From the NCBI RefSeq assembly GCF_000165485.1, contig NC_014623.1, positions 2,933,501 to 2,997,500 on the forward strand: 64,000 nt of DNA. The letters run 5' to 3'. The position numbers and the translations under genes are program-made. Below the pieces are notes generated by a model. The model was not told the DNA's origin, did not search any database, and saw nothing but the letters and a program-made list of their open reading frames with translations. Positions within the stretch are counted from its first letter, which is position 1. Each line of letters opens with the position of its first letter. Below are positions 31,800 through 51,912 of this stretch, one piece after another. The stretch is from Stigmatella aurantiaca DW4/3-1. Lineage in GTDB: Bacteria; Myxococcota; Myxococcia; Myxococcales; Myxococcaceae.

Positions 31800-31985
31800 A
31801 TGATACCTCTCATCTCTCAGACGCGTGGGCGGAAGCGACACCTCAACCTGGAAGTTGTCGGCCTGGAGGGGCCGCTCGGGGCGCCTCCCCCCTGGGAGTG
31901 GCAGCTCATCGAGTCGGCGCTCGCGAAGGTGCTCGATCCGAAACAGGCGAAGACCGGGGAGGCCCGCGATGCGACAGCGCCCTGA
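31800..31985 (+). CDS. Small protein preceding the recombinase
   Basis: A 61-residue frame, MIPLISQTRGRKRHLNLEVV then GLEGPLGAPPPWEWQLIESA and a basic/acidic tail. It overlaps the recombinase start (31969) by 17 bases, which suggests coupled translation. Small genes of this kind often precede large serine recombinases in myxobacterial elements; the family itself is unknown to me. Confidence 0.45.
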   Translation: MIPLISQTRGRKRHLNLEVVGLEGPLGAPPPWEWQLIESALAKVLDPKQAKTGEARDATAP

Positions 31986-33806: not shown

Positions 33807-34580
33807 ATGGGCGAGCTGACCGAGTTTGCATCGGGGGCAGGGCGAGGGCTTGGAGGGCTTTCTCGCCGACAGTTTGCGGAGCGAGCTGTGAAATCCAAAG
33901 AGGTGCTGCTCGCCGCCATGGGCCACTTGGGCCACCAGCACGTTAATGACTATGTGCGGGAGCCTAATGCTGTGCTTGAGGAGCAGGTACTTCTGGTGGC
34001 GCACTGCTTCGTCGCAACGTGGCCCACGAGGGAGAAGCCGCATCCCGTTGACGTCGTCGCGATGGCTGTCCTGAAGTGCGGGAAGTTGGAGGCATCGCTG
34101 GTCCGCCGCATCTTTGGCGGCTTCTCGCTGGAGAGCGATCTATCAGCCCCAACGGAAGCGCAGCTTCAAAAGGAGGGGCTTCGAATCGCCCGCGAGGTCG
34201 TGGTGCGCGACAGCCGCGCGGACCTCGTTGGATATGGCAAGGCGTTCTTCGAGCGTAACGTGATTGCCGTCGAGCTGAAGAATGCACCCGAGGCATGCGA
34301 GCGCCTCGCGGACCAGCTGGCGGACTATCGGCGTGCCGCCGACTCTGTTCGCGTTGTCATGTCGCCGGAGTGTCTGGCTCGTGCGTCGCTCGCACGCGGC
34401 GAACTGGCGGAGCCCTTCGCTTACGCCGAGTGCATCTCGAAGATGGGGGCTGAACTCTGGACTCTGGACTCAACCACGGGCGAGTTTCAGCGAATCAAAG
34501 GGGCCTCGTCGGGTGCGTATGTGTCCGCAGACTACGAATTACTCTGGACGCGGCTGGCCGGTGTGGCAGTAGCCGCGTAG
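33807..34580 (+). CDS. PD-(D/E)XK-like protein, paralogue A, flanking the defence island
   Basis: A 257-residue protein of unknown family. The ATG at 33807 follows AGGAGGG and gives exactly the same length as its paralogue at 47961; the upstream in-frame ATG at 33748 lies in the conserved leader. An N-terminal helical part (LEEQVLLVAHCFVATWPTRE; FGGFSLESDL) precedes SRADLVGYGKAFFERNVIAV then ELKNAPEACERLADQLADYR. Asp139 with Glu156-x-Lys158 has the spacing of a restriction-endonuclease-fold active site, and RRAADSVRVVMSPECLARAS resembles the following strand and helix. It is 44 bp upstream of cap4, same strand, so may belong to the CBASS operon. No described defence family was recognised. Confidence 0.7.
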   Translation: MGELTEFASGAGRGLGGLSRRQFAERAVKSKEVLLAAMGHLGHQHVNDYVREPNAVLEEQVLLVAHCFVATWPTREKPHPVDVVAMAVLKCGKLEASLVRRIFGGFSLESDLSAPTEAQLQKEGLRIAREVVVRDSRADLVGYGKAFFERNVIAVELKNAPEACERLADQLADYRRAADSVRVVMSPECLARASLARGELAEPFAYAECISKMGAELWTLDSTTGEFQRIKGASSGAYVSADYELLWTRLAGVAVAA

Positions 34581-34624
34581 TGACCAGGAGAATTCTTCGG
34601 CCGATCTCCACGTTGAGGTGTTCT

Positions 34625-36133
34625 ATGGCTTTGAAGCAGGTCGCAGCACGGATGGAAGGCGACGTGTTCCAGGGGATGGTCTTCTGGCTGAACGCGGCCA
34701 TGCTGCTTAGACCCTCGGCGAAGGTCTCGCGAGTATCGATCGAGCACGATCAGGCGGCGGGTGTCGACGACGTATCGGTTCACTACGATTCGCCAGGAAT
34801 CAACGCCGGTGGGCGCTCGTGCGCGGCCGACTACTTCCAGGTGAAGTACCACGTCGATCGAAGCTCGGAGTACGCCTCCGACAGCTTCTGCGACCCGGAT
34901 TTTATCGGCGCCACGCGTTCGCTGCTTCAGCGTTTCCACGATGCGCGCTCTCGGCTGGGCAACGCTGATGGCTGGTATAGGTTGAACCTGGTCAGCAACT
35001 GGCAGTGGGCCTCAAGTGACAGGCTCGGACCGCTTCTGCGTCAGTCGGAAGATGGCGCGCTTCCTGACCGGTTCTTCAGCGAGGGTGCGCGCTCAGAGCT
35101 CGGCAAGATCCGGAATGCGTGGCGCGAGCATCTCGAACTTTCTGAAGCCGACTTCGAAGACTTCGCGCGTCGTCTTCGGCTCCGCGTGGACTACCTCAGC
35201 CGCCCCGCTCTCAAGGATCTGCTCAACGAGCGTCTCATCAACGTTGGAATGCGAGAGATCCCCGTCGACAAGGCGCAGAATGTCTACGACTCGCTTACGC
35301 AGCACTTCATCATGAACGGGACCAACTCGTTCGACCGGGAGACGTTCCGCGCAATGTGCGAACGAGAGGGGCTGCTCGTTTCGCCGCCACCATCAGGTCC
35401 TCCAGTATTGGGCATTCGCAGCTTCATGCGGTTCGCGGAGCGCATGGAGGACGAGTGCATGTCCTTCGTCTGCGTGGCTAGCAACTTCGAGGGCCGTCAC
35501 ATTCGTTCTGCGGACTCCTGGCAGAACGTGGTTCTGCCTGACGTGGCGTCGTTCCTGAGGGGCGCCTCGTCGCTCCGCACGGACGAACACCACCTTCTGC
35601 TCGAATGCCACAGCTCACTCGCGTTCCTCGCCGGTTACGAACTCGACCGGAAATCGGGCGCGCAGGTCTTCCCCGTCCAGAAGGGCGTTCGGATGTCGGT
35701 GTGGAAGCCTGGGGGCTCAATGAGCATTGCGAACAGCGCGTGGGCAATGACGACGAGCCCCGCTGGTAGCGGCTCCGACGTGGCGATCTCCGTCTCCGTT
35801 TCCCGAGATGCACTCGCCGACGTGAAGGCGTACGCGGATGGTTCATCAGCCATCGGAGGGGTAGTCGACGCTCGTCCAGCGTCGGGCATCGGGCAGCGCG
35901 CGGTCGCAAACGCTGACCACGCCGTGGCACTCGCGGACAGCCTCGCCGAGGTGATTCGCGCGCACCGGCCCAAGGAGGGTGGCACGACACATCTCTTCAT
36001 CGCTGCTCCCAACGCCCTCGCCTTCTTCCTCGGGCAGCATCGAGGAGCGCTGGGCAAGGTGCAGCTCTACGAGTTCGATTTCGAAGGTGAACGGGGAGGC
36101 TCGTACTCGCCGAGCATTCGCCTGCCCGCCTGA
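34625..36133 (+). CDS. cap4: CBASS effector Cap4: dsDNA nuclease fused to SAVED domain
   Basis: A 502-residue effector. The N-terminal Cap4-type nuclease domain (EGDVFQGMVFWLNAAMLLRP; ADYFQVKYHVD) shows Asp48-Asp49 and the Gln72-Val-Lys74 signature of this PD-(D/E)XK branch. The C-terminal SAVED domain (about 290-500) carries AVANADHAVALADSLAEVIR and THLFIAAPNALAFFLGQHRG followed by KVQLYEFDFEGERGGSYSPS. In characterised relatives SAVED binds the cyclic oligonucleotide made by the CD-NTase and activates DNA cleavage, killing the infected cell. The ATG at 34625 follows GAGGTG; the track start at 34580 is too early. The CD-NTase follows after 11 bp. Confidence 0.88.
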   Translation: MALKQVAARMEGDVFQGMVFWLNAAMLLRPSAKVSRVSIEHDQAAGVDDVSVHYDSPGINAGGRSCAADYFQVKYHVDRSSEYASDSFCDPDFIGATRSLLQRFHDARSRLGNADGWYRLNLVSNWQWASSDRLGPLLRQSEDGALPDRFFSEGARSELGKIRNAWREHLELSEADFEDFARRLRLRVDYLSRPALKDLLNERLINVGMREIPVDKAQNVYDSLTQHFIMNGTNSFDRETFRAMCEREGLLVSPPPSGPPVLGIRSFMRFAERMEDECMSFVCVASNFEGRHIRSADSWQNVVLPDVASFLRGASSLRTDEHHLLLECHSSLAFLAGYELDRKSGAQVFPVQKGVRMSVWKPGGSMSIANSAWAMTTSPAGSGSDVAISVSVSRDALADVKAYADGSSAIGGVVDARPASGIGQRAVANADHAVALADSLAEVIRAHRPKEGGTTHLFIAAPNALAFFLGQHRGALGKVQLYEFDFEGERGGSYSPSIRLPA

Positions 36134-36144
36134 CGAGGTTCGCA

Positions 36145-37284
36145 ATGGAACTACCGACTGACTTCAAAGAATTCCTGCAAGAGATTCGGCCGACCGAGAA
36201 TCAGCGCTCGGATCTGCAGACTGGGCACAAGACGCTGCGCGAGCGGTTGCTTGCGGACGAGGACCTGAAGAAGTGCTTCATCTCGGACTTCCTCCAGGGC
36301 AGCTATCGACGTGCAACGGCCATTCGTCCGAAGGGCGACCGCCGTTCTGACGTCGACATCATCGTCGTCACGAGACTCTCCGAGCGAGAGTACACGCCAG
36401 CGAAGGCGATGGACCTGTTCAAGCCATTCCTCGATAAACACTACAAGAGGAAGTGGCGGCAGCAGGGCCGCTCTTTCGGCATCGAGCTGTCGTACGTCGA
36501 GCTTGACCTGGTTCTCACTTCGGCTCCTTCGGAAGCGGAAGTGGGCATCCTGCGGTCGGACGCCGTCACGAGCGATGACGATCTCGAAGAGGCGAAGGAC
36601 TGGCGCCTCCACCGTTCGTGGGTCGCGCTAGGTTCGCGCTACCGAAGCGATGCCAAGAACCTGCTCGCAGAGGCCAAAGGGCAGGACGAGTGGAGGGCGC
36701 AGCCGCTCCACATCCCTGATCGCGATGCGGACAAGTGGGAGCCCACGCATCCTCTCGCGCAGATAGCTTGGACGCGCGATAAGAACGCTCGCACCGACGG
36801 TCATTTCGTCAACGTCGTGAAGGCGATCAAGTGGTGGCGTGTCGAGAACTATGAGGAGCCGAAGCACCCGAAGGGCTTTCCGCTTGAGCGGCTCATCGGC
36901 GAGTGCTGCCCCGACGGCATTACGAGCGTCGCGGAGGGTATCGTGAAGACGCTAGAGAAGATAGTCTCGCAGTACGCACTGACTGTTCTGGCTGGTGGCA
37001 AGCCGATCCTTCCTGACTACGGCGTATCGACTCATGACGTCTTCAAGCGGATCTCCGCTGAGGACTTCAAGAAGTTCTACGACCAAGCAAAGACGGGCGC
37101 AGACCTCGCGCGCCGTGCCTACGCCTCGGAGGACCGAACGGAGAGTGGCAACCTCTGGCGCGAGCTGTTCGGGCGCAAGTTTCCGAAGCCGCCGGAAAGC
37201 GGGGGGGGGACGGGAGGGTCGAGCCGTGGTGGTTTCACGCCGCCAACGGGACCGGCCGTTCCGGGGAGCGGACGCTTCGCGTGA
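36145..37284 (+). CDS. CBASS CD-NTase (cGAS/DncV-like nucleotidyltransferase)
   Basis: A 379-residue SMODS-type enzyme that would make a cyclic di- or trinucleotide signal on phage infection. The polymerase-beta-like core is intact: Gly52-Ser53 in FLQGSYRRATAI, the metal-binding pair Asp69-x-Asp71 in RRSDVDIIVVTRL, and the third Asp121 in LSYVELDLVLTS. The helical second half (NVVKAIKWWRVENYEEPKHP; FPLERLIGECCPDG) follows. The C-terminal Gly-rich tail ending GSGRFA would be the site joined or removed by Cap2 and Cap3. The stop overlaps the GTG of cap2. Nucleotide product cannot be read from sequence; a SAVED effector suggests a tri- or tetranucleotide. Confidence 0.92.
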   Translation: MELPTDFKEFLQEIRPTENQRSDLQTGHKTLRERLLADEDLKKCFISDFLQGSYRRATAIRPKGDRRSDVDIIVVTRLSEREYTPAKAMDLFKPFLDKHYKRKWRQQGRSFGIELSYVELDLVLTSAPSEAEVGILRSDAVTSDDDLEEAKDWRLHRSWVALGSRYRSDAKNLLAEAKGQDEWRAQPLHIPDRDADKWEPTHPLAQIAWTRDKNARTDGHFVNVVKAIKWWRVENYEEPKHPKGFPLERLIGECCPDGITSVAEGIVKTLEKIVSQYALTVLAGGKPILPDYGVSTHDVFKRISAEDFKKFYDQAKTGADLARRAYASEDRTESGNLWRELFGRKFPKPPESGGGTGGSSRGGFTPPTGPAVPGSGRFA

Positions 37285-39143
37285 CCTCAACGCCCGTCCT
37301 TACACCGCTCAAGATCGAGCGCGGCCTGCACGGGCTGCAGGGTATCGCTGCGTGCCTCGTCGAGGGTGGGCCGAGGTTCGACGAAAAAGTGCACTGCTGG
37401 GTCGTCACACTGTCACTCCATCGCGATGTCGGCGCTCGGTTCGTCGGAACGTCGACGAGATGGTGCGTACTCATCGACGGGAGCTATCCTTTCGGCCCTA
37501 TCTCGTTCTACCCCGCCGCGGAAGGCGGGATCACCGCGACGTTCCCTCATCAACGGAAGAACACGGCTGGCCGCGAGCGACGTGGTTGGCGAGGTGGCAA
37601 GTTGTGTCTCGACTCTCCGTTTGGAGACGAGCGACGAGTAACCGTGGTTCGCGATCCAGTTGGCGACGTCGATGCGCGACTCAGGTGGCACGTCGAGCGC
37701 GCGATGGCATGGCTTCAGCACGCTGCCAACGACCAGCTCCTGGCTGAGGGTGAACCATTCGAATTGCCCGAACGCCCTCACACCATCGTGCGAGAGTGGG
37801 AGCGCCACCTCGTTGTGCACGACGAGACCGCAACTTCGTTCGCGGCGTGGAGCGGCCGAGAGCGTTCCTTTGGTCGTGCGCGTTTCGGCGCTGTCACCGA
37901 CATCGGCGGTGCACTTGGAGTATCTCGTTTCGAAGACCAGCAAGGAATCACCATTCGCACCTGGGCTGGCCGTGAGCTTGGCGATCTCGGGAAAGGCTAC
38001 GTCAACGGCTTTTGGTGGCTCTTGCCCAAGCCCATCGTTTTGCTGCCGTGGCAGGCGCCTGGCACATGGGGGGAGCTTCGACGGATCGCGAAAGCGATGG
38101 GGCTCGAAACCGATGCAATGCTGCGATGGCTCTTCCCCTCAATTCGAGGCGCGAAGGCGAGGAGCGTTCTGCTGCTCGGTTACCCCGTGCCTCTGCGCGT
38201 TGGTGCGTCGCCTTCTGAGGTGCACTGGGACGCCCTCCTGCTGCCATGCCTGAACGAAGCGGCGGGGAAACCGCCGAGTGGTTTTCGCCCAAACGCGCGC
38301 GGTTGGTGGCACCGCGACCGATTCGGGAAGTTCGCGGACAACGTTCCGCTCGAGTACTTGTACTTGGAGAACTGGAGCCCCCAGCGTCTCCAAGCTCGCG
38401 GCCGACTTCCAAGTGCAGTGCGGGACCTGCGAATCGCGCTTCTTGGCGTCGGCGCTCTTGGTTCGCTCCTCGCGGAGATGCTCGTGCGCGCGGGCGTCAC
38501 GGATATTGCCCTCGTCGATGACGACCGTGTGGATGCTGGCAACGTGTGCCGACATGTGGCCACGCTCGTCGATGTCCGTAAGGGCAAGGTGCAGGTCGTT
38601 GCGCAGCGACTGCGGCAGATTTCGCCGGCTGTTCGAGTCGTTGAGGTGAGCAAGGCTCTCTGTGGCGACGCGAAGACAATCGTCGAGCGGCTCGACCCTT
38701 ATGATGTCGTCATCGAGTGCACGGCTTCAGACGAGGCCGTGACGTTGCTCGCGACGGGGTGGTGGTCGATCCCGCGTGTCTTCGCTTCGTTCTCACTCGG
38801 CTACGGCGGGAAGCGACTCTTTTCGTTCGGCGTGAGCGGCCACGAGTTCCCCCAGCAGGAGTTCACATCGAACGTTCGCTTGTGGATCGAGCACGAGGCG
38901 GCAACATGGGCCAACAGTGAAGAGGTCCTTGAGGGAGCAGGGTGCTGGTCGCCGCTGTTCCCGGCTCGCTACGACGACGTGGTAATGGCTGCCGCAACAT
39001 GCGTGAAGGAACTTGAGACGCTCGTCGCGCAGCGGCCACGCGCCCCTCGCTTTCGGGTGTTCGCGCAGACCGCCTCCGACGATGGCTTCCAGGGGTTCGT
39101 ACCCGAGGCCATCCCGCCCACCGTGGAGGCGAAGGCGCCATGA
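37281..39143 (+). CDS. cap2: CBASS Cap2: E2-E1 ubiquitin-like ligase fusion
   Basis: A 620-residue type II CBASS accessory enzyme. The N-terminal E2-like domain (about 1-170) has Cys109 in RRGWRGGKLCLDSPFGDERR as probable E2 cysteine. The C-terminal adenylation (E1/ThiF) domain has the nucleotide loop LLGVGALGSLLAEMLVRAGV (about 388-407), IALVDDDRVDAGNVCRHVAT, and a probable catalytic Cys near 480 in VIECTASDEAV. In known systems Cap2 conjugates the CD-NTase C-terminus to a target and primes the enzyme. Start is GTG, overlapping the CD-NTase stop (GTGA); the stop overlaps the cap3 start (ATGA). Confidence 0.9.
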   Translation: MTSTPVLTPLKIERGLHGLQGIAACLVEGGPRFDEKVHCWVVTLSLHRDVGARFVGTSTRWCVLIDGSYPFGPISFYPAAEGGITATFPHQRKNTAGRERRGWRGGKLCLDSPFGDERRVTVVRDPVGDVDARLRWHVERAMAWLQHAANDQLLAEGEPFELPERPHTIVREWERHLVVHDETATSFAAWSGRERSFGRARFGAVTDIGGALGVSRFEDQQGITIRTWAGRELGDLGKGYVNGFWWLLPKPIVLLPWQAPGTWGELRRIAKAMGLETDAMLRWLFPSIRGAKARSVLLLGYPVPLRVGASPSEVHWDALLLPCLNEAAGKPPSGFRPNARGWWHRDRFGKFADNVPLEYLYLENWSPQRLQARGRLPSAVRDLRIALLGVGALGSLLAEMLVRAGVTDIALVDDDRVDAGNVCRHVATLVDVRKGKVQVVAQRLRQISPAVRVVEVSKALCGDAKTIVERLDPYDVVIECTASDEAVTLLATGWWSIPRVFASFSLGYGGKRLFSFGVSGHEFPQQEFTSNVRLWIEHEAATWANSEEVLEGAGCWSPLFPARYDDVVMAAATCVKELETLVAQRPRAPRFRVFAQTASDDGFQGFVPEAIPPTVEAKAP

Positions 39144-39652
39144 CGGACTGGAGCGGGAAGACAGCTGACGGCACCTTCGCCGTGCAGATTCAGGCGCCGG
39201 TGCTCGGTGCTCTAGATCGCCTCTGCCGCGAAGCAGGCGCTTTCGAGACAGGCGGCATCCTCATTGGCCGCTACTCGGACGATCTCGCGGTGGCGATCGT
39301 GCGGGAGGCGACGCCGCCACCGCTAGACTCGCGTCGCGGGCGCTCGTGGTTCGTGCGGGGCGTGGGCGGCCTCGGCGACATTCTCGGCAATAGTTGGCGG
39401 GCGAAGGAGCGCACGTACTACGTCGGTGAGTGGCACTTCCATCCCGTCGCCCACATCGAACCGAGCGGCGACGACTTCGACCAGATGCTCAAAATCAGCC
39501 ACGCCAAGAAGTACGACTGTAAGGAACCGTTGCTGCTCATCCTCGGCACCGGCAAGCAAGATGGGTGGCGCTCGCTCCGTGCGTTCGTCTGCCCAGCGGG
39601 CTGCGCCCCATTGGAGCTCTTACCTCGGGTTGGAGCCGCTGATGAAAAGTGA
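39140..39652 (+). CDS. cap3: CBASS Cap3: JAB/JAMM isopeptidase
   Basis: A 170-residue Mov34/MPN/PAD-1-like metalloprotease. The JAMM site is complete: Glu36 in AFETGGILIGR, His99-x-His101 in GEWHFHPVAHIEPSGDDFDQ, then Ser109 and Asp112 at the canonical spacing. It would cleave the CD-NTase conjugate made by Cap2 and keep CBASS in check. Starts by ATGA overlap with cap2. A tiny frame of 35 codons overlaps its 3' end. Confidence 0.9.
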   Translation: MTDWSGKTADGTFAVQIQAPVLGALDRLCREAGAFETGGILIGRYSDDLAVAIVREATPPPLDSRRGRSWFVRGVGGLGDILGNSWRAKERTYYVGEWHFHPVAHIEPSGDDFDQMLKISHAKKYDCKEPLLLILGTGKQDGWRSLRAFVCPAGCAPLELLPRVGAADEK

Positions 39653-40225: not shown

Positions 40226-40563
40226 CTTCGGGACGGACGTGAGCCTACTCACTTTCACGTAGCACGCGATCAGCATCGCAGCAGGAGGGTAGGTGCGGTG
40301 CCGCTTGCCACCCAGGACGGCGTCGCTCCGGGCGGAGACGGTCGTGCGGAGTGCATCGAGCATCAACCTCCGGTCCTTCGTGGAGAATCGTGGGGGGACG
40401 ATGGAGAGGGAGTGCCGCCCCGGAGCATGTCGGCGGGAGCGCCGCCGCGCAGCCAAGTGAAGGTAGGGAAGAGCGGTTGCCTGGATGCTCTGCGAACGAT
40501 CGGCCGACCCCGTTGGCCTGGGGTGAGCAACGCGGTTGCGGGGGCGGCGCCGCTGGAGCCCCC

Positions 40564-41040
40564 ATGCAGGAGACCCATAAGGCGAGAGTCCTGCGCAGGG
40601 CTCGCGGGAGGCGGACGGTAGGGTGTGCGCTGGCGTGGCGAGGTGGAAATGGGCAGGTGCAGGAGCGTGGGTGGGAGTACCGGCGGAGGCAGCCGCAGGG
40701 GACGGTGCTGTACGAGGCGGTGAGGGATCACCTCGCCACGTTGCTGGCGGAGGCCAGTGAGATGGGGAGAGGCTTGCCCCGGTATGTGGAGCGGGACTTC
40801 GCCAAGTACCTGGAATGTGGGGTATTGGCGCACGACTTCGCGCGGGTGCAATGCGAGAACTGCAAGGACGAACTCCTCGTCGCTTTTTCATGCAAGGGGC
40901 GTGGGGTGTGTCCCTCCTGTAACTGTTACCGCGCACGCAGGATGAGGGGGAAGTGGGCAGAATTGAGCGCACTGGTTGATGGCAAGGCGCTGGTCTCGCG
41001 AAGCTCGTGCTGCACCTCGAGCACCCTGGCTTGCGCGTGA
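40564..41040 (+). pseudogene. IS91-family transposase, N-terminal fragment
   Basis: [40 protein letters not shown] and the zinc finger CENCKDELLVAFSCKGRGVC with PSCNCYRARRM define an IS91/Y2-type transposase. After about 155 residues the frame ends (41040) and the HUH/Y2 catalytic part is absent. The region 40226-40563 has no recognised gene. Confidence 0.75.
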
Positions 41041-41123: not shown

Positions 41124-43400
41124 TCAAGCCGTGGTCTGGGTGGAGGCCCCGGCCCGCTGGGGATCTCGCTCCAACTGGGCGATGAGTTCGTCGGTCAAGG
41201 CTCTATCCAGCACGCGAACCCCCAGCTCATGTCGGGCCCGGTGCTCGTTATCGTAGTAGCCCTCGAAGGAGAGGAAGTTGAAGCTCGAGACAATGGCCCA
41301 GTCGTCGCACACCAGGATTTTGGCATGCACGTTTCGGTTGAGCAGGCGTGCCCCCGACGCCTCAAGCTTGTCACGCCTTGCGCCGTAGTCACCCCCGGCA
41401 TCCCACTCGTCGTTGAACACCAGGGTGACCTTGACGCCGCGCTCCAGGGCCTTGTGCAGCTCCTCCACGGGCACCGAACCCAGCACACCGCTGCCGAGCG
41501 TCTTGGAGGAGATGACGATGCGCTCCCGGGCGGAGGCGAAGGCTTCCAGCAGGAGCTGGCGGTGCTCGGCATCAAAAGTGGGGATGGCGGCGCCGCGCAC
41601 TTGGAGCAGTTCCTTCTTGAGGCTGGCCAGGCTCTGCTTCCATCCGTCGTGCCAGATGCCTCGGGCGAGCGCCATGGCCTTTTCGGGGGAGAGCGTTCCT
41701 CTCAGGGTGCTCTGTGCCGATGAGGGCTGCGGGCTGGGCGGCCGGACCTTGCCTCCGAGGGCCACCGGCGCAGCTGTGGCGCGGCGCCCGAAGAGGGTGG
41801 GGTCGTCATTGAGCGCACGTTGGAGGCGGAAGTCCGGCAGCAGCGTGCGCGCCCAACTCAGGATGGAAATCAGGGCACGGGGGGTCTCAGGCCGCTCATC
41901 CACGGCGCTCCACTCCTCCATGGCACCCTCGGGCACCGCAGCCTGCTTGTCGGGGAGCTCCAGCTTGAGTCCAATCTCCAGCGCGCTGCGTTCCGGGCCG
42001 CTGTTGAGGAAGTTGCAACTGGTGACGAGGGCCCAGCTCATGTCGCAGACGATGAACTTAGCGTGCACCGCGCAGGAGCGGTCCGGGACGTAGAGCGCGC
42101 CAGGGCGCTGTCCATCCGGCCGTGTCAGCTCCATCAGCTCGCGCAGACGTGGAGGGATGCACTGCTGCGCCTGCGCCTTGTGGTCGATGCCCCACAGCAG
42201 GTGCACCTGCACGCCTCGCGTGACGGCGTCGAGGATGGCCATGCGCAGCGGCTCACTTTGCTCCAACTGCCCCAGCCAGGGGCCGGCGAGCACCGTCTGC
42301 TGCCTGGCCTCGCGCAGCGCGCGCAGGAGCAGCTCATGGTGCGCCGCGGCCCCGACCACCAGGTGCGTGTCGGCCCGGTAGCTGCGCCCCTCGGAGACCT
42401 CCTCAGCGGCGTTCTGCTCCAGCGACGAGAGCTGCGTGTGCATCTGCAGCAGCTCCTCCTGGGGAAGGGTCGTGGGGTCCGCAAGGTCCTTAAGGGCGCT
42501 CTCCAGCTCGGAGACACTCAGGGCGGGATGGATGCTGCGAGCGACAGCTTCCTGCGCTCCGGACTTCTCGTCGAGCGGGAGGCGGACGAAGAACTGGTTC
42601 TTGTCGCGAGCAATGCCGCGGTCCCACAGCTGCCGGAGGCCCAGGGCGATACCGCGCCTCACCGAGGCCGGAAGCGTCGCCGGGCCCACGACTCGCAGGT
42701 CGGGCGGACCGTCCTCCTGGGCGCCCGGGAGTGCTCGAAGCTCGACGACGACCCTCCTGCGCTGCGCGTTGGCGCCCGCCAGCCCACCCACGTCGCTCGC
42801 GCCGTGCACCGTTGCATCGAGGACCCGCTGCCGCAGGAGGCTTGAGGCAATCATCTGCTCGGCGCTGCTCAGGTCCTCCTCACCAGACGAGTAGCGGCTG
42901 CGCAGCGCGCTGGCCACTGCCACCATCAGCTGTGCTTTGGGAATCTCCTCGATGAGAGGCAGCTGGTCGTTCTCGGGCGCGTACAGTAGGGGGGGCGGCT
43001 GGGTGGCCTCCCGGGTCGCGTGGAAGACGGCTCCAGAGACGAGCTCCTGGAAGAGGACGTATTCACGCGGGTCCGGTGGCCTCAAGGAGGCCAGTCGCCG
43101 TGCCCATCCCTCGGTTGGGTGCGCGGGGTCACCTATCTCCTGGCGCACGGATTCCGACAACACCATCATCCCCGAGGAGCGCTCCAGCGTGATGAAGCCT
43201 GCGCGCAGCAGGTCCACGCACAGGTCCAGGGAAACCCGGGGAGGCAGCGCCAGTGATTGGCGAAGCTTCTCCTCGGTGTTGGCGCTCGCTGCAATGGTGC
43301 GCAGCGCGAACTGCTCCATCAGGCTCAGCCCGTCAGCTGGCCCCAGATGCACCTGGACCTTGAGGGAACGGCAGGGGATGGCCACGGAGATGGTCTTCAC
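41124..43400 (-). CDS. mkoB: Mokosh type I-like MkoB: dual-HKD phospholipase D-type protein
   Basis: A 758-residue protein with two PLD halves. Each has an HxK(x4)D motif followed by Ser/Asn: VHAKFIVCDMSWALVTSCNF (about 444-463) and VHAKILVCDDWAIVSSFNFL (about 689-708). They are preceded by ARQQTVLAGPWLGQLEQSEP and ERIVISSKTLGSGVLGSVPV segments typical of PLD nucleases. A long N-terminal part (1-340) has winged-helix-like sequences (TEEKLRQSLALPPRVSLDLC). The pair of a kinase-helicase fusion and a PLD protein matches Mokosh type I, a described anti-phage system; assignment is from domain order. Its start overlaps the helicase stop by four bases, so they form one operon. Confidence 0.82.
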   Translation of the reverse strand: MKTISVAIPCRSLKVQVHLGPADGLSLMEQFALRTIAASANTEEKLRQSLALPPRVSLDLCVDLLRAGFITLERSSGMMVLSESVRQEIGDPAHPTEGWARRLASLRPPDPREYVLFQELVSGAVFHATREATQPPPLLYAPENDQLPLIEEIPKAQLMVAVASALRSRYSSGEEDLSSAEQMIASSLLRQRVLDATVHGASDVGGLAGANAQRRRVVVELRALPGAQEDGPPDLRVVGPATLPASVRRGIALGLRQLWDRGIARDKNQFFVRLPLDEKSGAQEAVARSIHPALSVSELESALKDLADPTTLPQEELLQMHTQLSSLEQNAAEEVSEGRSYRADTHLVVGAAAHHELLLRALREARQQTVLAGPWLGQLEQSEPLRMAILDAVTRGVQVHLLWGIDHKAQAQQCIPPRLRELMELTRPDGQRPGALYVPDRSCAVHAKFIVCDMSWALVTSCNFLNSGPERSALEIGLKLELPDKQAAVPEGAMEEWSAVDERPETPRALISILSWARTLLPDFRLQRALNDDPTLFGRRATAAPVALGGKVRPPSPQPSSAQSTLRGTLSPEKAMALARGIWHDGWKQSLASLKKELLQVRGAAIPTFDAEHRQLLLEAFASARERIVISSKTLGSGVLGSVPVEELHKALERGVKVTLVFNDEWDAGGDYGARRDKLEASGARLLNRNVHAKILVCDDWAIVSSFNFLSFEGYYDNEHRARHELGVRVLDRALTDELIAQLERDPQRAGASTQTTA

Positions 43401-46400
43401 GGCTTTCCTCCGGAAGAGGCCTTGAAGTGGAAGCCCAAGGCGGGGTCGGCCGCATTGAGACGGAAGCGCTCTTGGGAGCGGATGTGGCGCGTGACGTTGG
43501 CCCAGTGCGGCAAGTCCGAGAAGCGCTCGAAGTGGCGCAGGCTGCCCAGGATGACCAGCAGCCGCCGGGCCCGGCTGAACATGACGTTGATGCGCGCCGG
43601 ATCGTCCAGGAAGCCCAGCGCTTGCGCCTGCCGCTCGTTGGCGTTGTTGCGCACTAGGCTGACGAAGACGACCTCGGCCTGGCGGCCCTGGAAGGAGTCC
43701 ACAGAGTGGAAGGACTCGGGCGCCAGTTGGATTCGCTTGCGCAGGAGTTCGCGCTGCTTGAGGTAGGGCGTCAGGACAACAACGGCGGGAATGTCCGGGT
43801 CGTGCTGGCGCAGCTCCCCCATGGTGTTGAGCAGGTGCTTGAGCAACTGCATCTCGGCCTGGTTGGTTCGGCCTCGTTCGTAGGCCCCGATGCCCAGCGA
43901 GCTGGTGTCCACCCAGAGCAGGGCGGACTGCCGGAACTGCTCGGGACGCTTCACGCCATGAAGGCGCCGGGTGTCGGGGTGGGGCCGCAGCTGGCCCCCA
44001 TAGAAGCCGTGGCTGACCAACTCGCTGATGTCCGGGTGCATTCGGCGCTGCTCGTCAATCATGTGTCGGGGGGGCGAGCTGGAACCGTGCGCAGAAGCGC
44101 CCTCCATCAGGTGCCGGAAGTGCTTGAGGTAGGGCAGCATCGCCTCGGTGGCGGGGCGCCCCACGCTTTCGGCCGTCAACCGCTCACGGATGTCATGGCG
44201 CAGCATCTGTTCCACCTCGCCGTAGCGGAAGGCGGGCAGCTGCGCCTGGTCGCCGATGAGCAGCCAGCGGTCTCCCTGGACGAGGGGGATGGCCAGCTCG
44301 CTCAGCCAGGCACGTGCGGCCTCCTCGATGACCACTAGGTCGAAGCCGCCCGCGCGCATCGCCTCGGTATTGGCGCCGGCACCGGCGCAGGTGGCAAAGA
44401 CGATGCTGGCCGCCCGCTGCACCCTGTGGAAGAGCTCGACGTCCAGCTCTTGCTTCCGGGCCGTGGTTTGCCACTGGTCTTGGATGGCCGCGAGTGCCGG
44501 GGTGTTGTCCGAGGCCTCGCTGCGCTCCAGGCGGCCGCGCATGTCCTCCACCACATGCGCGACGAGGGAGTCCCTGGCCCGGAGGCTGACCCGGTGCTCC
44601 GTGGCTTGGCTGGCAACGCGCACGCTCAGCGGGCGGAGCTCCTTATCCGGCCAGCTCTTGCGCAACTGCTCGCTGATGACCTCCAGGAGGTTGTCGAGCG
44701 CGTCGTTGGACTGGGCACTCACCAGGATGCGTGCGAAAGGGTCCGTCTTGAGCACATCCAGGATGACGTTCGAGGCCACGAACGTCTTGCCAGTGCCCGG
44801 AGGCCCCTGCAGGACGAATAGGGGCCAGGAGGCGATGATGCGGCGGATGAGCTGGGCTGTGCGCTCGTCCTGGATGTGCCGCGCGACGTGTTGCAACTCG
44901 GCGGGCGTTGCCAGCTCCAGCGCGCGCGGCTCGCGCAGCTGGGCGAGCAGTTCGTGGTCCTGGGACAACCCCAGGGCCGCGCGCTGCTGACGGTGCAGCA
45001 CGGCGCGCGAGCGGCTGTCATCCAGGCGGAGCCTGCCCCGGCGGGGAATCAGCCGGTCTCCCTCCATGGGCTTGAAGCGCACGCTGCGCGCATCGAGCCG
45101 CGCATCGAACTGGAGCTTCAGGGGGACGTCTCGCCCCTGCTCATCCCGCAACAGGAAGACCGGCTGCTCGTCGCGGTCGACCGCCTCCTCCACCATGCGC
45201 TCGAAGAAGTCGCCCATCTCAGGGACCTTCCCCGCGCGCCAGAACAGCTCGGCGAAGGCGTCCTTCGGGTCCTTGAGGTGGGTGGGCGGTTGCCGGGCGG
45301 TGGCTCGGAGGATGATGGGGCGAGGGGTGAGGTCCCCGGGAGGTGCCGGGCCGTCCTCCACACGCTCGTAGGCGTACTCCTTGATTGCCAGCTCCGCCTC
45401 GTGCACCTGCACCAGCCAGTCGACCGTTGCGCTCACCTCGGGGACGTGGATGCTGGCGCTGTCAAAGCGGATGGATTCGACGAGGTCAGCCCAGGAGTCA
45501 TCGGTGGCCGGTGGCCGGGTGCGTCCGGTCTGGCGGAAGAAGGAGGCGCTCACCGTAGGCATGGTGCGCTGCCGAGGTTGGTTCCTCAGCTCACGGACCC
45601 TGGAGGCATGATCGGCGTACTTGACCACCAGGACACGGCGGTCTTCTTTAGGGCTGTCCTGGTAGAGGTACTGGCAGAAGTAGGCATAGCGCTGGCCCAG
45701 CAGAACCACTTTTGCGGAGCCGGCATCCTGTGCCACGCCGCTGTCCCAGGGCTCGAAACCCTGAGGTGACCAGGTGAGCACGCCTCCAGTCAGGTCTCGC
45801 TCGATGAGGCCCGCATATTCCTGCTCGTCGAGCCGCTCCGGGGCGCTGCGCCCCGCGCCATCCTTGTACATCCGCTCCACCGACTGGCGCAGGAAGTACA
45901 GGTGCAGCGGGGCCCGGCGCGCCTGGCTCGCCTCGGCCTCGAACTGGTTGAGCAGCGAGGGGAACAGCCGCCCCAGGGTGGCGTGCGCCTCGATGGCGGA
46001 GGGGATGCGGTTGCGCGCAGCGGGAGCCGTCATCTGCTCGAGCAGCCGACGCAGCTCCAGGGGCAACTGCGCCTGGCGCAGCCGCTGCTGGGCGCTCTCG
46101 ATGAGCCGTCGATGTGCGCTCTCGTCATACCCGTTGAGGACGGCCGCCCGGCACTCCTCTTGGGGGGGCAGGCCGACGAACCAGTCGATGCCCACCATGC
46201 CGAGGCTGAAGACGTCACAGGAGAAGTTCTCCAGGTCGCGCACGGAGCGGCCCAGCAGCGGGCCCAGCCGCTCGGGCGCCAGAGTGATGAGCGAGGCGGC
46301 GTCACGGGGCAGCAGGGCGCTGCCGCGGGACTCATGCACCACGCCCTGGCCCCGCAGCCAGCTGGCGACGAAGGCGCTCATCTGGAAGCCATCCAGGCGG

Positions 46401-46915
46401 GGGCTGGAGTCGTGCTCGTCCAGCGCGCATAGCACCTGGGGGGTGATGGTGCGGTGGATGAGGCCCTCGCGGTGCAGCAGGGCGACGGCGTCCAGCAGGT
46501 TGAGCAGCATGCGCAGCGCATGCACCCGGTCCTTGCGCAGGCGCTGCAGCGCAATGTGCGCTCCGACGAGGGGCTGCCCCGGGTCCTCGATGAACAGGTA
46601 GCCCAGGCCCAGGCTCGGCAGGCTCGCCGCATCGCGCAATATGGGCAGGGCAGGGTGCTGGCGCCGGGAGATGCGCATCAGCGCCCGTGTCTCGTTGCGC
46701 CAGAAGCTCGTGAGCACCGTCTCGGCGGCGCCCAGCCGGTAGATGCGCATGATGAGGGGGTTGGCGGCGCCATGGGGGTAGACGAAGGTTTGCCACACGT
46801 TGCCGGGGACGAGGTCCTCGACCTCTCCCTCCACGGGGGGCGCATAGCGCTCATGGAGCTGCCCTCCGGGCGCGAATAGGTAGGAGAGGTGCTGACGGAC
46901 GTCGAACTCGCTCAT
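43397..46915 (-). CDS. mkoA: Mokosh type I-like MkoA: kinase-like domain fused to SF1 helicase
   Basis: A 1172-residue protein. Residues 1-350 form a protein-kinase-like domain (LLNLLDAVALLHREGLIHRT; CDVFSLGMVGIDWFVGLPPQ), but the catalytic loop reads HRTITPQV where HRDxKPxN is expected, so it is probably a pseudokinase. The C-terminal UPF1-like SF1 helicase is intact: FVLQGPPGTGKTFVASNVIL (about 700), DLVVIEEAARAW (about 857), LLIGDQAQLPAFRYG, EQRRMHPDISELV, VDSFQGRQAEVVFVSLVRNN and RINVMFSRARRLLVILGS. The ATG at 46915 follows AAGGAGG at ideal spacing; the frame runs on to 47206 without support. Mokosh helicases are thought to sense phage RNA intermediates. Confidence 0.85.
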   Translation of the reverse strand: MSEFDVRQHLSYLFAPGGQLHERYAPPVEGEVEDLVPGNVWQTFVYPHGAANPLIMRIYRLGAAETVLTSFWRNETRALMRISRRQHPALPILRDAASLPSLGLGYLFIEDPGQPLVGAHIALQRLRKDRVHALRMLLNLLDAVALLHREGLIHRTITPQVLCALDEHDSSPRLDGFQMSAFVASWLRGQGVVHESRGSALLPRDAASLITLAPERLGPLLGRSVRDLENFSCDVFSLGMVGIDWFVGLPPQEECRAAVLNGYDESAHRRLIESAQQRLRQAQLPLELRRLLEQMTAPAARNRIPSAIEAHATLGRLFPSLLNQFEAEASQARRAPLHLYFLRQSVERMYKDGAGRSAPERLDEQEYAGLIERDLTGGVLTWSPQGFEPWDSGVAQDAGSAKVVLLGQRYAYFCQYLYQDSPKEDRRVLVVKYADHASRVRELRNQPRQRTMPTVSASFFRQTGRTRPPATDDSWADLVESIRFDSASIHVPEVSATVDWLVQVHEAELAIKEYAYERVEDGPAPPGDLTPRPIILRATARQPPTHLKDPKDAFAELFWRAGKVPEMGDFFERMVEEAVDRDEQPVFLLRDEQGRDVPLKLQFDARLDARSVRFKPMEGDRLIPRRGRLRLDDSRSRAVLHRQQRAALGLSQDHELLAQLREPRALELATPAELQHVARHIQDERTAQLIRRIIASWPLFVLQGPPGTGKTFVASNVILDVLKTDPFARILVSAQSNDALDNLLEVISEQLRKSWPDKELRPLSVRVASQATEHRVSLRARDSLVAHVVEDMRGRLERSEASDNTPALAAIQDQWQTTARKQELDVELFHRVQRAASIVFATCAGAGANTEAMRAGGFDLVVIEEAARAWLSELAIPLVQGDRWLLIGDQAQLPAFRYGEVEQMLRHDIRERLTAESVGRPATEAMLPYLKHFRHLMEGASAHGSSSPPRHMIDEQRRMHPDISELVSHGFYGGQLRPHPDTRRLHGVKRPEQFRQSALLWVDTSSLGIGAYERGRTNQAEMQLLKHLLNTMGELRQHDPDIPAVVVLTPYLKQRELLRKRIQLAPESFHSVDSFQGRQAEVVFVSLVRNNANERQAQALGFLDDPARINVMFSRARRLLVILGSLRHFERFSDLPHWANVTRHIRSQERFRLNAADPALGFHFKASSGGKP

Positions 46916-47960
46916 CGTCCCTCCTTGGGACAGGGAAGCTGACGTAACGCAGCCGCGAGCAGGTGCAACCCGCCGCGTATGAAATACATGCGCGCCGTGA
47001 AGCACCATGGCCAACCCGCCCGGCACGGAGTCGCTTGAAACCCTCCGACGGGTCTGGCCAGACATCGCGCTCACCTCGCGTGCGCGCTGCGCACCAGTGG
47101 ATGCCCGCGTGCCTGGCCGGGGAGGCCTGTACCAGCGCCGCCTGGCGGACCCGGTGGACGGGCGAGGACCTGGATGAGGTCGCGCGTTGGGAGCGCTCTC
47201 CATCATCGACGAGGGCCTCGCGCCCCCGCACGCTGCTTGGGCGCGGGAGGCAGCGCGCTACGGCGTCATCTTCGGGTTGCTCTTAGAGGCCGAGGGCTCG
47301 CGGCTTGGAATCGAAGAGGCAGGTCAACGCGAGGCCCATTAGGGCCTGCCGGTGCGAACCGCCTGCCTGCGTGGCCCCGTTGCTGTCCCGGCAGCGGCGT
47401 CTGAGACTGGCTTCGGCTGGCGCGGCGGGGTGGCGCGCCAGGCGCGCGGGTACCTCACACGCCCGCACCGTGGGCCAGCGCCGTCCCTTGCCCGCTGACT
47501 GTACGTCTGGAAGCGCTCCACGTGGCGATGGGTTACGGTCGGCGTCATAGGGGCGGCCGCTTTGCTGTGCGCGCATCCGCCCTCAGTCGAACAGAGGGTG
47601 GGCTGCTTATCTCGCCCGTGGAGCACTTCCCGCAGCAGCGTCGCTCTACGACGAGGAACTCCGAACGTTCAGGCCACCTGCATCAGGGAAGACGCCGCCT
47701 CGGCAGTCAGTCCGAGCTGACGACGCCCAATCGCGCGCCTCGCTCACTGGCATTGATGCGCTACCTAGCGGGTCTTGACTCACCTAGGACGCAGTGATCG
47801 AGCTTGGAGAGGTTGATGTATGCCTTGTCCCTTCGCGAGGGCCACTGGACCCCGTGTCCCTACCTTTGGTTACCTTTGATGCCCCCCCCTGATGGGGATG
47901 GCATGTCAGACCGCCCCGCTAGGTTGCTCTGCGCTTGTGCGTACTTTAAGGGAGCTGAAG
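46916..47960. other. Kilobase gap between mkoA and paralogue B
   Basis: Holds the mkoA promoter on the minus strand, a gene relic ending at 47342, a GGTTACGGTCGGC copy (47531), a CTCGCTCACTGGCATTGATG stretch (47737) like the DNA left of the IS701-type relics, and a tandem TACCTTTG pair near 47862. No intact gene was found. Confidence 0.4.
47180..47342 (+). pseudogene. 3' fragment of an unrecognised gene
   Basis: The frame ending at 47342 reads LGALSIIDEGLAPPHAAWAR, EAARYGVIFGLLLEAEGSRL and GIEEAGQREAH. It has strong coding character but a TGA precedes it, and the upstream reading (WTGEDLDEVARWE) is in another frame. Thus a frameshifted gene end. No family was recognised. Confidence 0.35.
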
Positions 47961-49184: not shown

Positions 49185-50701
49185 GGGTGTGGATCTGATC
49201 CTGAGCGTTGGACAAAGTCCAGAGAATCTGTTGGGTAGGGTGGACTGAGGAGGCAGAGCGATGCCCAAGGTCACCATCGAAGTACCCGAGGGATTCGAGG
49301 AAGTGGTCAAGCAGTTGGAGCAGACACTGCAGCGAGCGCAGAAGGGAGTAGAGGGAGCGAAGGCTGGGGACCTGGAGGCGTGGGATGCGGCATGGCAGTC
49401 GGTGAATGAGGGAGTGGAGGAGAGCGAGCGGCAGCTGAAACGGAGGTTGCTTCGAGTCCTCGACGTCGACGCGCCCCAGGTCTGCATCAACGGCAAGCTC
49501 CACAAGCGAGTCGGGCGGTACGAGGCCCGGTACAAGACGAGGCAAGGGCCGGTAGAGGTAGAGCGCAGCCTGTACCGGGAAGTAGGGGTGCGTAACGGGC
49601 CGACGGTGGACGTGGTGGGCTTGAGGGCCGGAGCGGTGGAGGACGGGTGGCTGCCGGAGACAGCGCAGGCGATGGCGCACCTGATGGCCTGTGGCACCTC
49701 GCGGGAAGCAGACAGCACGGCCCAAGCGTTGGGTCGGCTGCCCTACAGCCGCAGCAGCTTCGAGCGGGTGGGGCACGCGGTGGGGGCGCTGTATGGCAGC
49801 CAGAGGCCACGGGTGGAAGCGGCGCTGGCGTCCGCATGGCCTGTGCCACAGCAGGCCCAAAGTGTGAGCGTGAGCCTGGACCGGGTGAGCGTGCCGATGG
49901 AGGAGCCACGCCCCAGGCCCCGGGGCCACCCCAAGGCCAAAGCCCCCAAGCGGCCGGCGACGCGTGCTTTCCGCATGGCGTACGTGGGCACCGTCACCCT
50001 GCACGACAAGGAGGGGCAGGCCCTCAAGAGCTTGCGCTATGGGCGCATGCCTAGGGCGACGCGAAACTGCTGACACAGCGCATGGCGCAAGATGTCCAGC
50101 AGGTGCTCAGCCAGCGACTGATGCCTGTGGTGGTGCTCACCGATGGCGCACCAGAAATGATGAACCTGCTGGACCAGGCGCTGGCCTCCCACACGCCCAA
50201 GGCGACGCAGGTGGTGCGCCTGGTGGACTTCTGGCACTTGATGGAGAAGTTGGCCCTGGCGGCCCTGCTCATTCACGGCGCGCTGGCTCCTCAGGGGATT
50301 GAGCGGTGGAAGCTTTGCCTGCTCAACCGAGAGGGGGCCGTGTGGCAGGTGCTCGCCGAACTGCATGAGAGTGGCAAGCGGCAGCAGCGACAAGGCGAGG
50401 GGCTGCCCGTCCACGACGCCATCACCTATCTGGAAAACCACGGGGAACGGATGAGCTATACCCTGGCACGCCAGAAAGGCTTGCCTATTGGCAGTGGGGG
50501 CGTCGAAGCCGCCTGCAAGTCCCTGGTGACCCTGCGGATGAAGCGACCCGGCTCCCGCTGGAAAGAAGACTCCGGCCAGCGAGTCCTGGACCTGCGCTCC
50601 CTCGTCTTGAGCGACCGCTGGGAGCCCGCCATGCGACTCACCCTCGCTCCCCTGCGCTCCGAAGTCCGGCTCGCTGCTTGATCAGGATCAGAACCAGACC
50701 C
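49185..50701 (+). mobile_element. ISKra4-type element nested in IS66
   Basis: A 1517-bp element with inverted ends GGGTGTGGATCTGATCCTGA (49185) and, reading inward from 50701, GGGTCTGGTTCTGATCCTGA: 18 of 20 match. It is flanked by an 8-bp target duplication GCGGAGCA (49177-49184 and 50702-50709). It carries one frameshifted transposase gene. Confidence 0.88.
49261..50681 (+). pseudogene. ISKra4-type transposase, one-base frameshift
   Basis: First part from ATG 49261: MPKVTIEVPEGFEEVVKQLE, APQVCINGKLHKRVGRYEAR, EVGVRNGPTVDVVGLRAGAV and SVSLDRVSVPMEEPRPRP (catalytic region). Near 50050 a base is missing, giving a stop at 50073; the true continuation GDAKLLTQRMAQDVQQVLSQ and VVVLTDGAPEMMNLLDQALA reaches 50681 (ENHGERMSYTLARQKGLPIG, SGGVEAACKS). 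The normal product is about 473 residues. A programmed shift is possible but unproven. Confidence 0.82.
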
Positions 50702-51912
50702 GCGGAGCAGGTCCACCGCACTGTCGACATTGCCGCGCCACGGCAGTGCGACCAGTGCGAGCAGGGGTTGGCAGGCCGTGCTGTCGAGCCTCTCCGGCAC
50801 CAGACGGTGGAGGTGGAGCCGATAAAGCCGCACGTGACAGAGTACCGGTGCCACGGCAAGCAGTGTGGCGGATGCGGCGCGGTGAGCTATGGCGAGCTTC
50901 CCGTCGAGGTGGCAGGCCACACCTTTGGAGAGCGCCTGACCGGCATCATCGTGCTGCTGTCGGGGCAGTACCGGCTCTCCAAGCGCAAGGTGCAGGATGC
51001 GCTTTCGGACCTGCTCGGAGTGCGCATCTGCCTGGGCTCCATTTCCAACCGCGAAGCCGAAGTCGCCAAGGCGTTGGAGGTGCCGGTGGCGCAGGTGGGG
51101 GACGCCATCCGAGAGGCGGAGCGCGCCCATGCGGATGAGACAGGCTGGTTCGAAGGCAAGGTGAATGGACGAGCCAAGCGGGCCTGGCTGTGGGTCGTCG
51201 TCACCGCGCACCTGGCACTCTTCCGCATCTCCCCCAGCCGGGGCAGCGAGGTGGCCAAGGCCCTGCTGGGCGAGGACTTCACCGGTTTTCTCACCACGGA
51301 CCGATGGAGCGCGTACAACTGGTACGACACCTTCCTGCGCCAGTTGTGCTGGAGCCACCTGACGAGGGACTTCCAGAGCTTCATTGACCGGGGTGGGGAA
51401 GGCGGCCGCCTCGGCGCGCTGCTCATGAAGGAGCGCGACCGCATGTTCCAGTGGTGGCGCCGAGTACGCGACGGGACGATGCCTCGAGAGGAGTTTGAAC
51501 TGCGGATGCCGAAGGTCGAGCGCAGAGTCGGCAGGCTCCTCCGTGACGCCGTCGTGTGCGCAGAGGACAAGACCGCCGGCACGGCGGCGGAAATCCTGAA
51601 GCTTGAGTCGGCCATGTGGACGTTCGTCCATGTGGAGGGGCTCGAGCCCACCAACAACTTCGGTGAGCGCACCATCCGCCACGCTGTCATGTACAGGAAG
51701 ACCAGCTTCGGGACGCAGTCGCCAGAAGGCAGCCGCTTCGTCGAGCGGATTCTCACAGTGGTCACGACGCTGCGGCTGCAGAAGCGCAACGTGCTCGAAT
51801 ACCTGACCGCAGCCGTTGGCGCGCATCGACGAGGGCTTCCAGTGCCATCCCTCCTCCCCGTCGCAGAGCCCTCTCAGCTCGCGGTCGCTGCCTGAGGCAG
51901 TGAACGCTTACG

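What the first reader, a model, noticed from the sequence alone, without database searches (positions are those of the whole stretch)
41124..46915. Mokosh type I-like pair with a degenerate kinase domain
The kinase-like/SF1 helicase fusion plus dual-HKD PLD protein matches the published Mokosh type I domain order. Here the kinase loop is HRTITPQV, lacking the catalytic Asp and the metal-binding Asn, and the DFG is not recognisable. So the kinase part may act as a sensor or scaffold, contrary to a simple phosphorylation model.
Basis: partly seen in the sequence, partly recalled or inferred. Interest (0 to 1): 0.66.

Follow-up and report, generated by a model that had tools for sequence, protein, structure and literature searches.

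The report
Mokosh-like pair with dead kinase
A bacterial gene pair that looks like a phage-defence system carries a kinase-shaped domain without the residues a kinase needs, and its relatives that share this loss also carry a doubled PLD-type partner enzyme, which suggests that in this branch the partner, not the kinase, does the work.

Summary
The genes at 41124-46915 are a MkoA/MkoB (Mokosh type I) pair by PADLOC profiles. MkoA residues 1-325 predict as a protein-kinase fold (Z 18), but VAIK Lys, HRD Asp, the loop Asn and DFG Asp are all replaced. The copy is not broken: three orthologues share the loss, and among them the domain is under purifying selection much like the helicase (dN/dS 0.08-0.15 against 0.09-0.10).

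The loss is not general in MkoA. Of 37 MkoA/MkoB loci compared, 19 have the dead kinase and 18 have HxDxxxxN. On a helicase tree the 19 lie on one side of a single branch (100/99). The same branch separates MkoB with two HKD motifs (18 of 19, one near-miss) from MkoB with one (8) or none (10), and helicase motif II EEA (19 of 19) from DEA (18 of 18).

Best reading: in this branch the pseudokinase is a scaffold or switch for a UPF1-like helicase, and the two-HKD PLD protein is the only catalytic effector. Where MkoB lacks HKD (four fetched loci also carry a PP2C phosphatase gene), the kinase or a NERD domain is the likelier effector. The traits change together on one branch only, so their coupling is inferred. 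Anti-phage activity is untested.

The parts
43397..46915 (-). mkoA: kinase-like / middle region / UPF1-like SF1 helicase, 1172 aa, ATG start
   Evidence: translation; PADLOC PDLC03920 7.1e-201; orthologues
45941..46915 (-). MkoA residues 1-325: pseudokinase domain
   Evidence: AlphaFold2 pTM 0.73, pLDDT 67; the 50 listed Foldseek matches are protein kinases; VIA-align Z 18.4; catalytic residues replaced
46433..46456 (-). degenerate catalytic loop HRTITPQV (residues 154-161); HRD Asp is T156, loop Asn is V161
46382..46390 (-). DFG-equivalent G176-F177-Q178
46745..46747 (-). VAIK Lys equivalent, R57
44891..45940 (-). MkoA residues 326-675: middle region without Pfam match at E 0.1
   Evidence: purifying selection
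43400..44890 (-). MkoA residues 676-1172: SF1 helicase (AAA_11/AAA_12; nearest solved relatives by sequence SMUBP-2, UPF1/NAM7)
44783..44806 (-). helicase Walker A GPPGTGKT (704-711)
44315..44326 (-). helicase motif II EEAA (864-867); DEA[ASG] in the 18 kinase-intact relatives
41124..43400 (-). mkoB: PLD-superfamily protein, 758 aa, GTG start overlapping the mkoA stop (GTGA)
   Evidence: PADLOC PDLC03922 2.5e-92; junction
42042..42065 (-). MkoB HKD motif 1, HAKFIVCD (446-453)
41304..41327 (-). MkoB HKD motif 2, HAKILVCD (692-699)
46919..46926 (-). Shine-Dalgarno-like AAGGAGGG before mkoA
   Evidence: sequence

Best explanation
The locus is an intact two-gene member of a pseudokinase branch of the MkoA/MkoB (Mokosh type I) family. 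SHOWN by sequence: the kinase-fold domain has lost VAIK Lys, HRD Asp, loop Asn and DFG Asp; it is maintained by selection; the sampled members of this branch pair it with a MkoB of two HKD (one member: one HKD and one near-HKD) and a helicase whose motif II reads EEA. INFERRED: MkoA's UPF1-like helicase engages foreign RNA or DNA; the pseudokinase domain does not phosphorylate but acts as scaffold or switch that couples helicase engagement to MkoB; MkoB, whose two HKD half-sites can build one active site inside a single chain, cuts the nucleic acid. In this branch the PLD is therefore the only catalytic effector, whereas in branches whose MkoB lacks HKD the kinase (or the NERD domain) is the likelier effector.
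For: Profiles: MkoA 7.1e-201, MkoB 2.5e-92. Kinase fold: AlphaFold2 of residues 1-345, the 50 listed Foldseek matches are protein kinases, best Z 18.4 with 3.9 A over 247 residues. Catalytic loss in 19 of 19 branch members: HRD Asp is N8/S7/R2/T1/A1, loop Asn S8/A5/T4/V2, DFG Asp G16/R3; VAIK Lys kept in 8, replaced in 10, gap in 1. Maintained: dN/dS 0.081-0.154 for the kinase-like part against 0.089-0.104 for the helicase in the three pairs among three orthologues; window against Pyxidicoccus 0.40 for both parts, with dS near 1. One change on a helicase tree of 37 loci, 100/99 support, in 100% of 200 bootstrap trees. Co-variation: strict HKD count 2 in 18 of 19 (M. iwaonis 1 strict plus a near-HKD) versus 1 in 8 and 0 in 10 of 18 kinase-intact loci; motif II E in 19 of 19 versus D in 18 of 18. 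PP2C gene directly downstream in 4 of the 4 Hyphomicrobiales kinase-intact loci fetched and listed in 0 of 10 pseudokinase plasmid loci. The MkoB model matches two-lobed PLD enzymes, PLD3 and PLD4 with ssDNA among them.
Against: The traits change together on one branch only, so the tree gives 1 independent pair and no statistical support for functional coupling. Intact kinase with single-HKD MkoB occurs in 8 of 18, so kinase and PLD activity are not exclusive; 14 of 18 kinase-intact loci list no PP2C. Kinase inactivity is read from sequence; kinase folds without HRD can have other activities. MkoB model confidence is low (mean pLDDT 54.7), and its listed matches include lipid-acting PLD1/PLD2, phosphatidylserine synthase and the top hit, a phospholipase D, so the substrate may be lipid and not nucleic acid. 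Loci were gathered with a few queries, so the sample is not even. No phage test exists for this locus.
Confidence: 0.6

Rival explanations
1. Atypical but active enzyme: the kinase-like domain uses other residues (for example AMP transfer, or a shifted metal site such as the E/Q after GF) and still modifies a target.
For: VAIK Lys is kept in 8 of the 10 alphaproteobacterial members and the alpha-C Glu in 17 of 19; the segment at DFG is strongly conserved (F 19 of 19, then E 14 and Q 5), so the pocket may still bind nucleotide in part of the branch.
Against: In the nine members of the window's half VAIK Lys is R, Q or T, and the E is Q in five; no Asp or Asn is conserved at either metal-binding position in the 19.
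Confidence: 0.15
2. Ordinary active Mokosh type I kinase; the degeneracy is only an alignment or sequencing error.
For: The same PADLOC profile matches intact-kinase members.
Against: Three orthologues from other genomes carry HRS in the same place; no HxDxxxxN in any of the 19.
Confidence: 0.02
3. Decaying gene: the kinase part is relaxing towards loss.
For: Pfam Pkinase is below its cut-off.
Against: Open frames, dN/dS 0.08-0.15 close to that of the helicase, and structural kinase residues kept.
Confidence: 0.03
4. The pseudokinase is the phage sensor itself (binds a phage protein), with the helicase as transducer.
For: Kinase folds without catalysis commonly act as interaction modules (established knowledge); the domain is N-terminal and is present across distant members.
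Against: Among three close orthologues it evolves about as slowly as the helicase, which is unlike a domain chasing a fast-changing phage ligand; no direct evidence either way.
Confidence: 0.2

Closest known systems
Mokosh type I, kinase-intact members of profile PDLC03920 (cyanobacterial and actinobacterial plasmids)
   Same: Gene order, kinase-fold + middle + SF1 helicase, adjacent PLD-like MkoB; same MkoA profile in the 7 of 9 scanned
   Different: They keep HRDxKPxN with DFG or DFA, motif II DEA, and MkoB has one HKD in 8 of 9 (none in M. marinum)
E. coli / Vibrio / Acinetobacter kind of Mokosh type I (PDLC03921 / PDLC03923)
   Same: Kinase-fold and helicase in MkoA, adjacent MkoB
   Different: 1635-1714 aa MkoA with an HGDxxxxN loop in the five sampled, NERD in the E. 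coli one; MkoB without HKD; profiles tested on E. coli (both genes) and Vibrio (MkoA)
Rhizobial plasmid pairs of R. etli type (ten loci)
   Same: Same branch: pseudokinase, two-HKD MkoB (one near-HKD in M. iwaonis), motif II EEA
   Different: VAIK Lys kept in 8 of 10; 26-31% identity to the window over the matched helicase part in the eight listed
PglW of type 2 BREX (PMC12839542, passages only)
   Same: Defence protein with NERD, a pseudokinase and an active kinase; described there as a possible sensory hub
   Different: The helicase BrxHI is a separate gene and the system is another one
KSR1 and other eukaryotic pseudokinases
   Same: KSR1 is among the VIA-align matches, Z 17.8; scaffold role recalled
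   Different: About 12% identity, fold only; tied with active kinases

Membership tests
Mokosh type I (PADLOC profiles) | MkoA profile match over most of its length | tested here: met
   PDLC03920 E 7.1e-201, profile 46-1099 of 1112
Mokosh type I (PADLOC profiles) | adjacent MkoB profile match | tested here: met
   PDLC03922 E 2.5e-92, 4-base overlap
Mokosh type I | kinase-fold domain N-terminal to the helicase | tested here: met
Mokosh type I | catalytically complete Ser/Thr kinase (implied by the published label, recalled; not required by the profile) | tested here: not met
   K, D, N, D all replaced; hence filed as a variant branch, not as a kinase-active member
Mokosh type I | SF1 helicase with Walker A | tested here: met
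   GPPGTGKT; AAA_11/AAA_12; motif II is EEAA, not DEA
Mokosh type I | PLD domain with HKD in MkoB | tested here: met
   two strict HKD motifs; PF13091 68.5 bits
Mokosh type I | protection against phage | not testable with these tools
   no experiment
E. coli-kind Mokosh type I (PDLC03921) | NERD domain in MkoA | tested here: not met
   no NERD match in the window's MkoA at E 0.1; NERD 32.5 bits in the E. coli one
Mokosh type II (MkoC) | helicase and PLD in one protein (read from where MkoA and MkoB match the MkoC profile) | tested here: not met
   two separate genes; MkoC matches only in parts
Protein kinase superfamily, pseudokinase | kinase fold with loss of HRD Asp and DFG Asp | tested here: met
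DISARM DrmC | DrmC equivalog score | tested here: not met
   68.9 bits against cut-off 133

The most novel reading that the evidence does not exclude
The family that annotation tools call Mokosh type I holds at least three mechanistic classes that trade effectors around a common helicase: a nuclease class (pseudokinase, two-HKD PLD, helicase motif II EEA; this window), a kinase class (intact kinase, HKD-less MkoB, in four Hyphomicrobiales loci with a PP2C phosphatase gene that may act as off-switch), and a class with both. If the helicase motif II Asp-to-Glu change slows ATP turnover, the nuclease class may work as an ATP-clamped scaffold and not as an unwinding motor.
Probability: 0.4. Interest if true: 0.72.

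Novelty: new variant of a known kind. Interest (0 to 1): 0.55.

Why it matters
I saw no worked-out mechanism for Mokosh: a review passage lists it as unknown (PMC12926258), while another paper states by citation that it degrades viral transcripts (PMC11291487). A branch with a dead kinase and a doubled PLD, beside branches with a live kinase and a PLD without HKD, separates the two enzymes by natural experiment and says which residue to mutate in which branch. It also warns that one annotation label covers proteins that may act in different ways.

Tried and rejected
The search for related loci with MkoA in genome contigs gave nothing; with the MkoB alignment it gave three loci, two of which (L015, L016) are the contigs already met as G024 and G053. 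Viral contigs gave no relative with MkoB or MkoA. Phage records gave only partial helicase matches, 4 records. Searches with a kinase-intact MkoA in the window's phylum and in that of G195 gave nothing, but there was no positive control, and only 2-3 of up to 298 listed candidates a genome were scored, so they do not show absence. The PADLOC MkoA profile alone cannot identify Mokosh: it has 51 matches in the window's own genome, most of them covering only its kinase part.

PADLOC was run on 5 of the 19 pseudokinase MkoA and 10 of the 18 kinase-intact ones; the others are placed by BLAST descent and by the tree. Dropped before counts: Acidiphilium multivorum, whose mkoA match is in two pieces and whose mkoB lies beside an IS66. 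Near-identical or similar plasmid records (for example H51, H52, H102-H104, H109-H111, H114, H115, H119-H121) were not fetched. The helicase of the own genome (L003/L014) served as outgroup only. In one search a relaxed HKD pattern (N allowed at the last place) gave Moraxella 2; the strict recount gives 0 there and 1 for M. iwaonis, and is the count used. Agro_fabrum has a long branch, so its place is less sure. Mesorhiz as annotated lacks the N-terminal part, so its VAIK position is a gap. 'Intact' means HxDxxxxN within the first 760 residues, no more. The plasmid gene tables are incomplete and list hypothetical proteins that I did not test, so absence of PP2C means not listed in the stretch shown. 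In one search the window row was read from a gapped file, so its printed positions are alignment positions; positions here come.

The kinase-domain model is moderate (pLDDT 67; the best of five is clearly better than the rest) and the listed Foldseek TM-scores are 0.38-0.48 by query length, so only the fold class is claimed. The MkoB model is unreliable before about residue 290. phmmer of MkoB against PDB sequences found nothing at E 0.01. With an outgroup the pseudokinase branch is nested among kinase-intact lineages, but its sister fork has 90/92 and the outgroup branch is long, so the direction of change rests mainly on the loss being the derived state.
Full report
What is there. Two genes on the minus strand overlap by four bases (GTGA): mkoA, 43397-46915, 1172 aa, with a Shine-Dalgarno-like AAGGAGGG before its ATG, and mkoB, 41124-43400, 758 aa. 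PADLOC's profiles call them MkoA (PDLC03920, E 7.1e-201) and MkoB (PDLC03922, E 2.5e-92). Pfam finds the SF1 helicase (AAA_11, AAA_12) and PLDc_2, but Pkinase only at 17.6 bits against a cut-off of 31.7. The nearest solved helicases by sequence are SMUBP-2 and UPF1/NAM7.

The kinase part. Residues 1-345 were folded with three relatives from named contigs (L015 Corallococcus sicarius, L016 Pyxidicoccus caerfyrddinensis, L017 a MAG titled Deltaproteobacteria): pTM 0.73, mean pLDDT 67. The 50 Foldseek matches listed from the PDB are protein kinases, and VIA-align gives Z up to 18.4, 3.9 A over 247 residues. So the fold is that of a protein kinase. The catalytic residues are gone: VAIK Lys is R57, HRD Asp is T156, the loop Asn is V161, and DFG reads G176-F-Q. 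Kept in the window are the alpha-C Glu E75, P-E-R of the APE motif, D234 and R303. There is no HRD elsewhere in the domain.

Not decay. Among 96 genomes of the family, 5 have a match at E 1e-60 or better: the window's own, three at 52-53% identity, and one at 33%; a search of 195 genomes of the phylum gives the same five. None of the other six genomes of the genus matches, which fits gain by transfer. The three orthologues carry HRS in place of HRT. Between them dN/dS is 0.081-0.154 for the kinase-like part, 0.094-0.146 for the middle region and 0.089-0.104 for the helicase; between the window and Pyxidicoccus it is 0.40, 0.44 and 0.40, with dS near 1. The domain is therefore kept by selection.

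Is the loss general? No. Of 37 pairs, 19 lack HxDxxxxN and 18 have it. The 19 are five from the window's family, four from the group of G195 (the MAG titled Deltaproteobacteria) and ten from alphaproteobacterial plasmids. In them the HRD Asp is N (8), S (7), R (2), T (1) or A (1); the loop Asn is S, A, T or V; the DFG Asp is G (16) or R (3); VAIK Lys is kept in 8, replaced in 10 and not covered in 1. On a helicase tree of the 37 the 19 are one side of a branch with 100/99 support, in 100% of 200 bootstrap trees. With an outgroup helicase (32 of these loci) the branch is nested within kinase-intact lineages, its sister fork at 90/92 and the outgroup long. Loss of kinase residues is best read as one old event.

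What changed with it. Strict HKD motifs in MkoB: two in 18 of 19 of the branch (M. iwaonis has one strict and one near-HKD), against one in 8 and none in 10 of the 18 kinase-intact loci. Helicase motif II: EEA in 19 of 19 against DEA in 18 of 18. In the four Hyphomicrobiales kinase-intact loci fetched, a gene annotated as PP2C phosphatase follows mkoB (PF13672 in the one tested), and there MkoB has no HKD. None of the ten pseudokinase plasmid loci lists a PP2C in the stretch shown, nor do the other 14 kinase-intact loci. These traits changed on one branch, so the data cannot show that one change required the other: the test finds one independent pair.

How it most likely works. By established knowledge of the families, a UPF1-like SF1 helicase binds and moves on RNA or DNA, a PLD enzyme needs two HKD half-sites (two chains with one each, or one chain with two), and kinase folds without catalysis act as binding or switching modules. 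I infer that MkoA binds foreign nucleic acid, that the pseudokinase part relays or gates this, and that the two-HKD MkoB cuts. The MkoB model, poor before about residue 290, matches two-lobed PLD enzymes, PLD3 and PLD4 with bound ssDNA among them, but also lipid-acting ones, so the substrate is open. In the branches whose MkoB has no HKD the kinase, or NERD in the E. coli kind, is the only obvious enzyme besides the helicase.

Comparison with what is known. One passage of PMC10952713 lists NERD for Mokosh type I and a PLD-like domain for types I and II. Passages of PMC11291487 state, by citation, that Mokosh degrades viral transcripts, and compare MkoA and MkoB with the piRNA pathway. One passage of PMC12278908 only names MkoA and MkoC among helicases. 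One passage of PMC12926258 lists the mechanism as unknown. The original description (Millman et al. 2022) is not held and is recalled. In the listings of my searches (the longer ones show 15-30 of 74-169 papers) I saw no account of a pseudokinase branch of Mokosh. Passages of PMC12839542 describe a pseudokinase beside an active kinase in PglW of type 2 BREX, the nearest precedent in a defence protein that I saw; the E. coli kind of MkoA also matches the PADLOC PglW profile over residues 53-445.

Verdict. The interpretation needs one correction, that the loss marks a branch and not the family, and gains the linked changes in MkoB and in helicase motif II. It is a new variant of a known kind.

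Noticed in passing
window 34580-39652 (+): Type II CBASS-like operon facing the pair: SAVED/endonuclease effector, SMODS cyclase, E1-E2 protein and JAB peptidase (PADLOC and Pfam).
   Followed up: partly
window 30540-33171, 40351-41040, 50678-51895, 15889-17550: DUF1016/YhcG PDDEXK nuclease gene, large serine recombinase, an IS91-type zinc-binding transposase remnant and IS66 transposases around the island.
   Followed up: partly
L013:14984-17050, L017:7512-9548, L045:13004-15070, L046:12697-14625: Third gene overlapping the end of a 1095-1100 aa mkoB in all four members of one sub-branch; three of the four have a Walker A (AAPGMGKS/GAPGMGKS) and weak AAA/NACHT matches, the fourth has none. 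Possible three-gene Mokosh variant.
   Followed up: partly
L037:8370-9095, L038:8445-9254, L039:8382-9167, L051:8382-9167: PP2C phosphatase gene after a kinase-intact mkoA and an HKD-less mkoB in four Hyphomicrobiales plasmids.
   Followed up: partly
L014:8072-12720 (own genome, about 20 kb beyond the window's right end): Kinase-like gene (445 aa) next to a separate UPF1-like helicase gene (1151 aa) that matches the helicase half of MkoA: the same two parts unfused.
   Followed up: no
L018 (Nostoc plasmid pNPM2): Mokosh pair followed, after one small gene, by a cyclase/E2/Mov34 CBASS-like set, as Mokosh and CBASS are neighbours in the window.
   Followed up: no
L031, L034, L041: IS66 genes within about 1 kb of Mokosh genes in three other plasmids, as IS66 lies near the pair in the window; may be chance.
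   Followed up: no
E. coli genomes, L048: 350 of 5426 complete E. coli genomes hold DNA similar to the mkoA of Vibrio anguillarum (327 over at least 80% of the query).
   Followed up: partly
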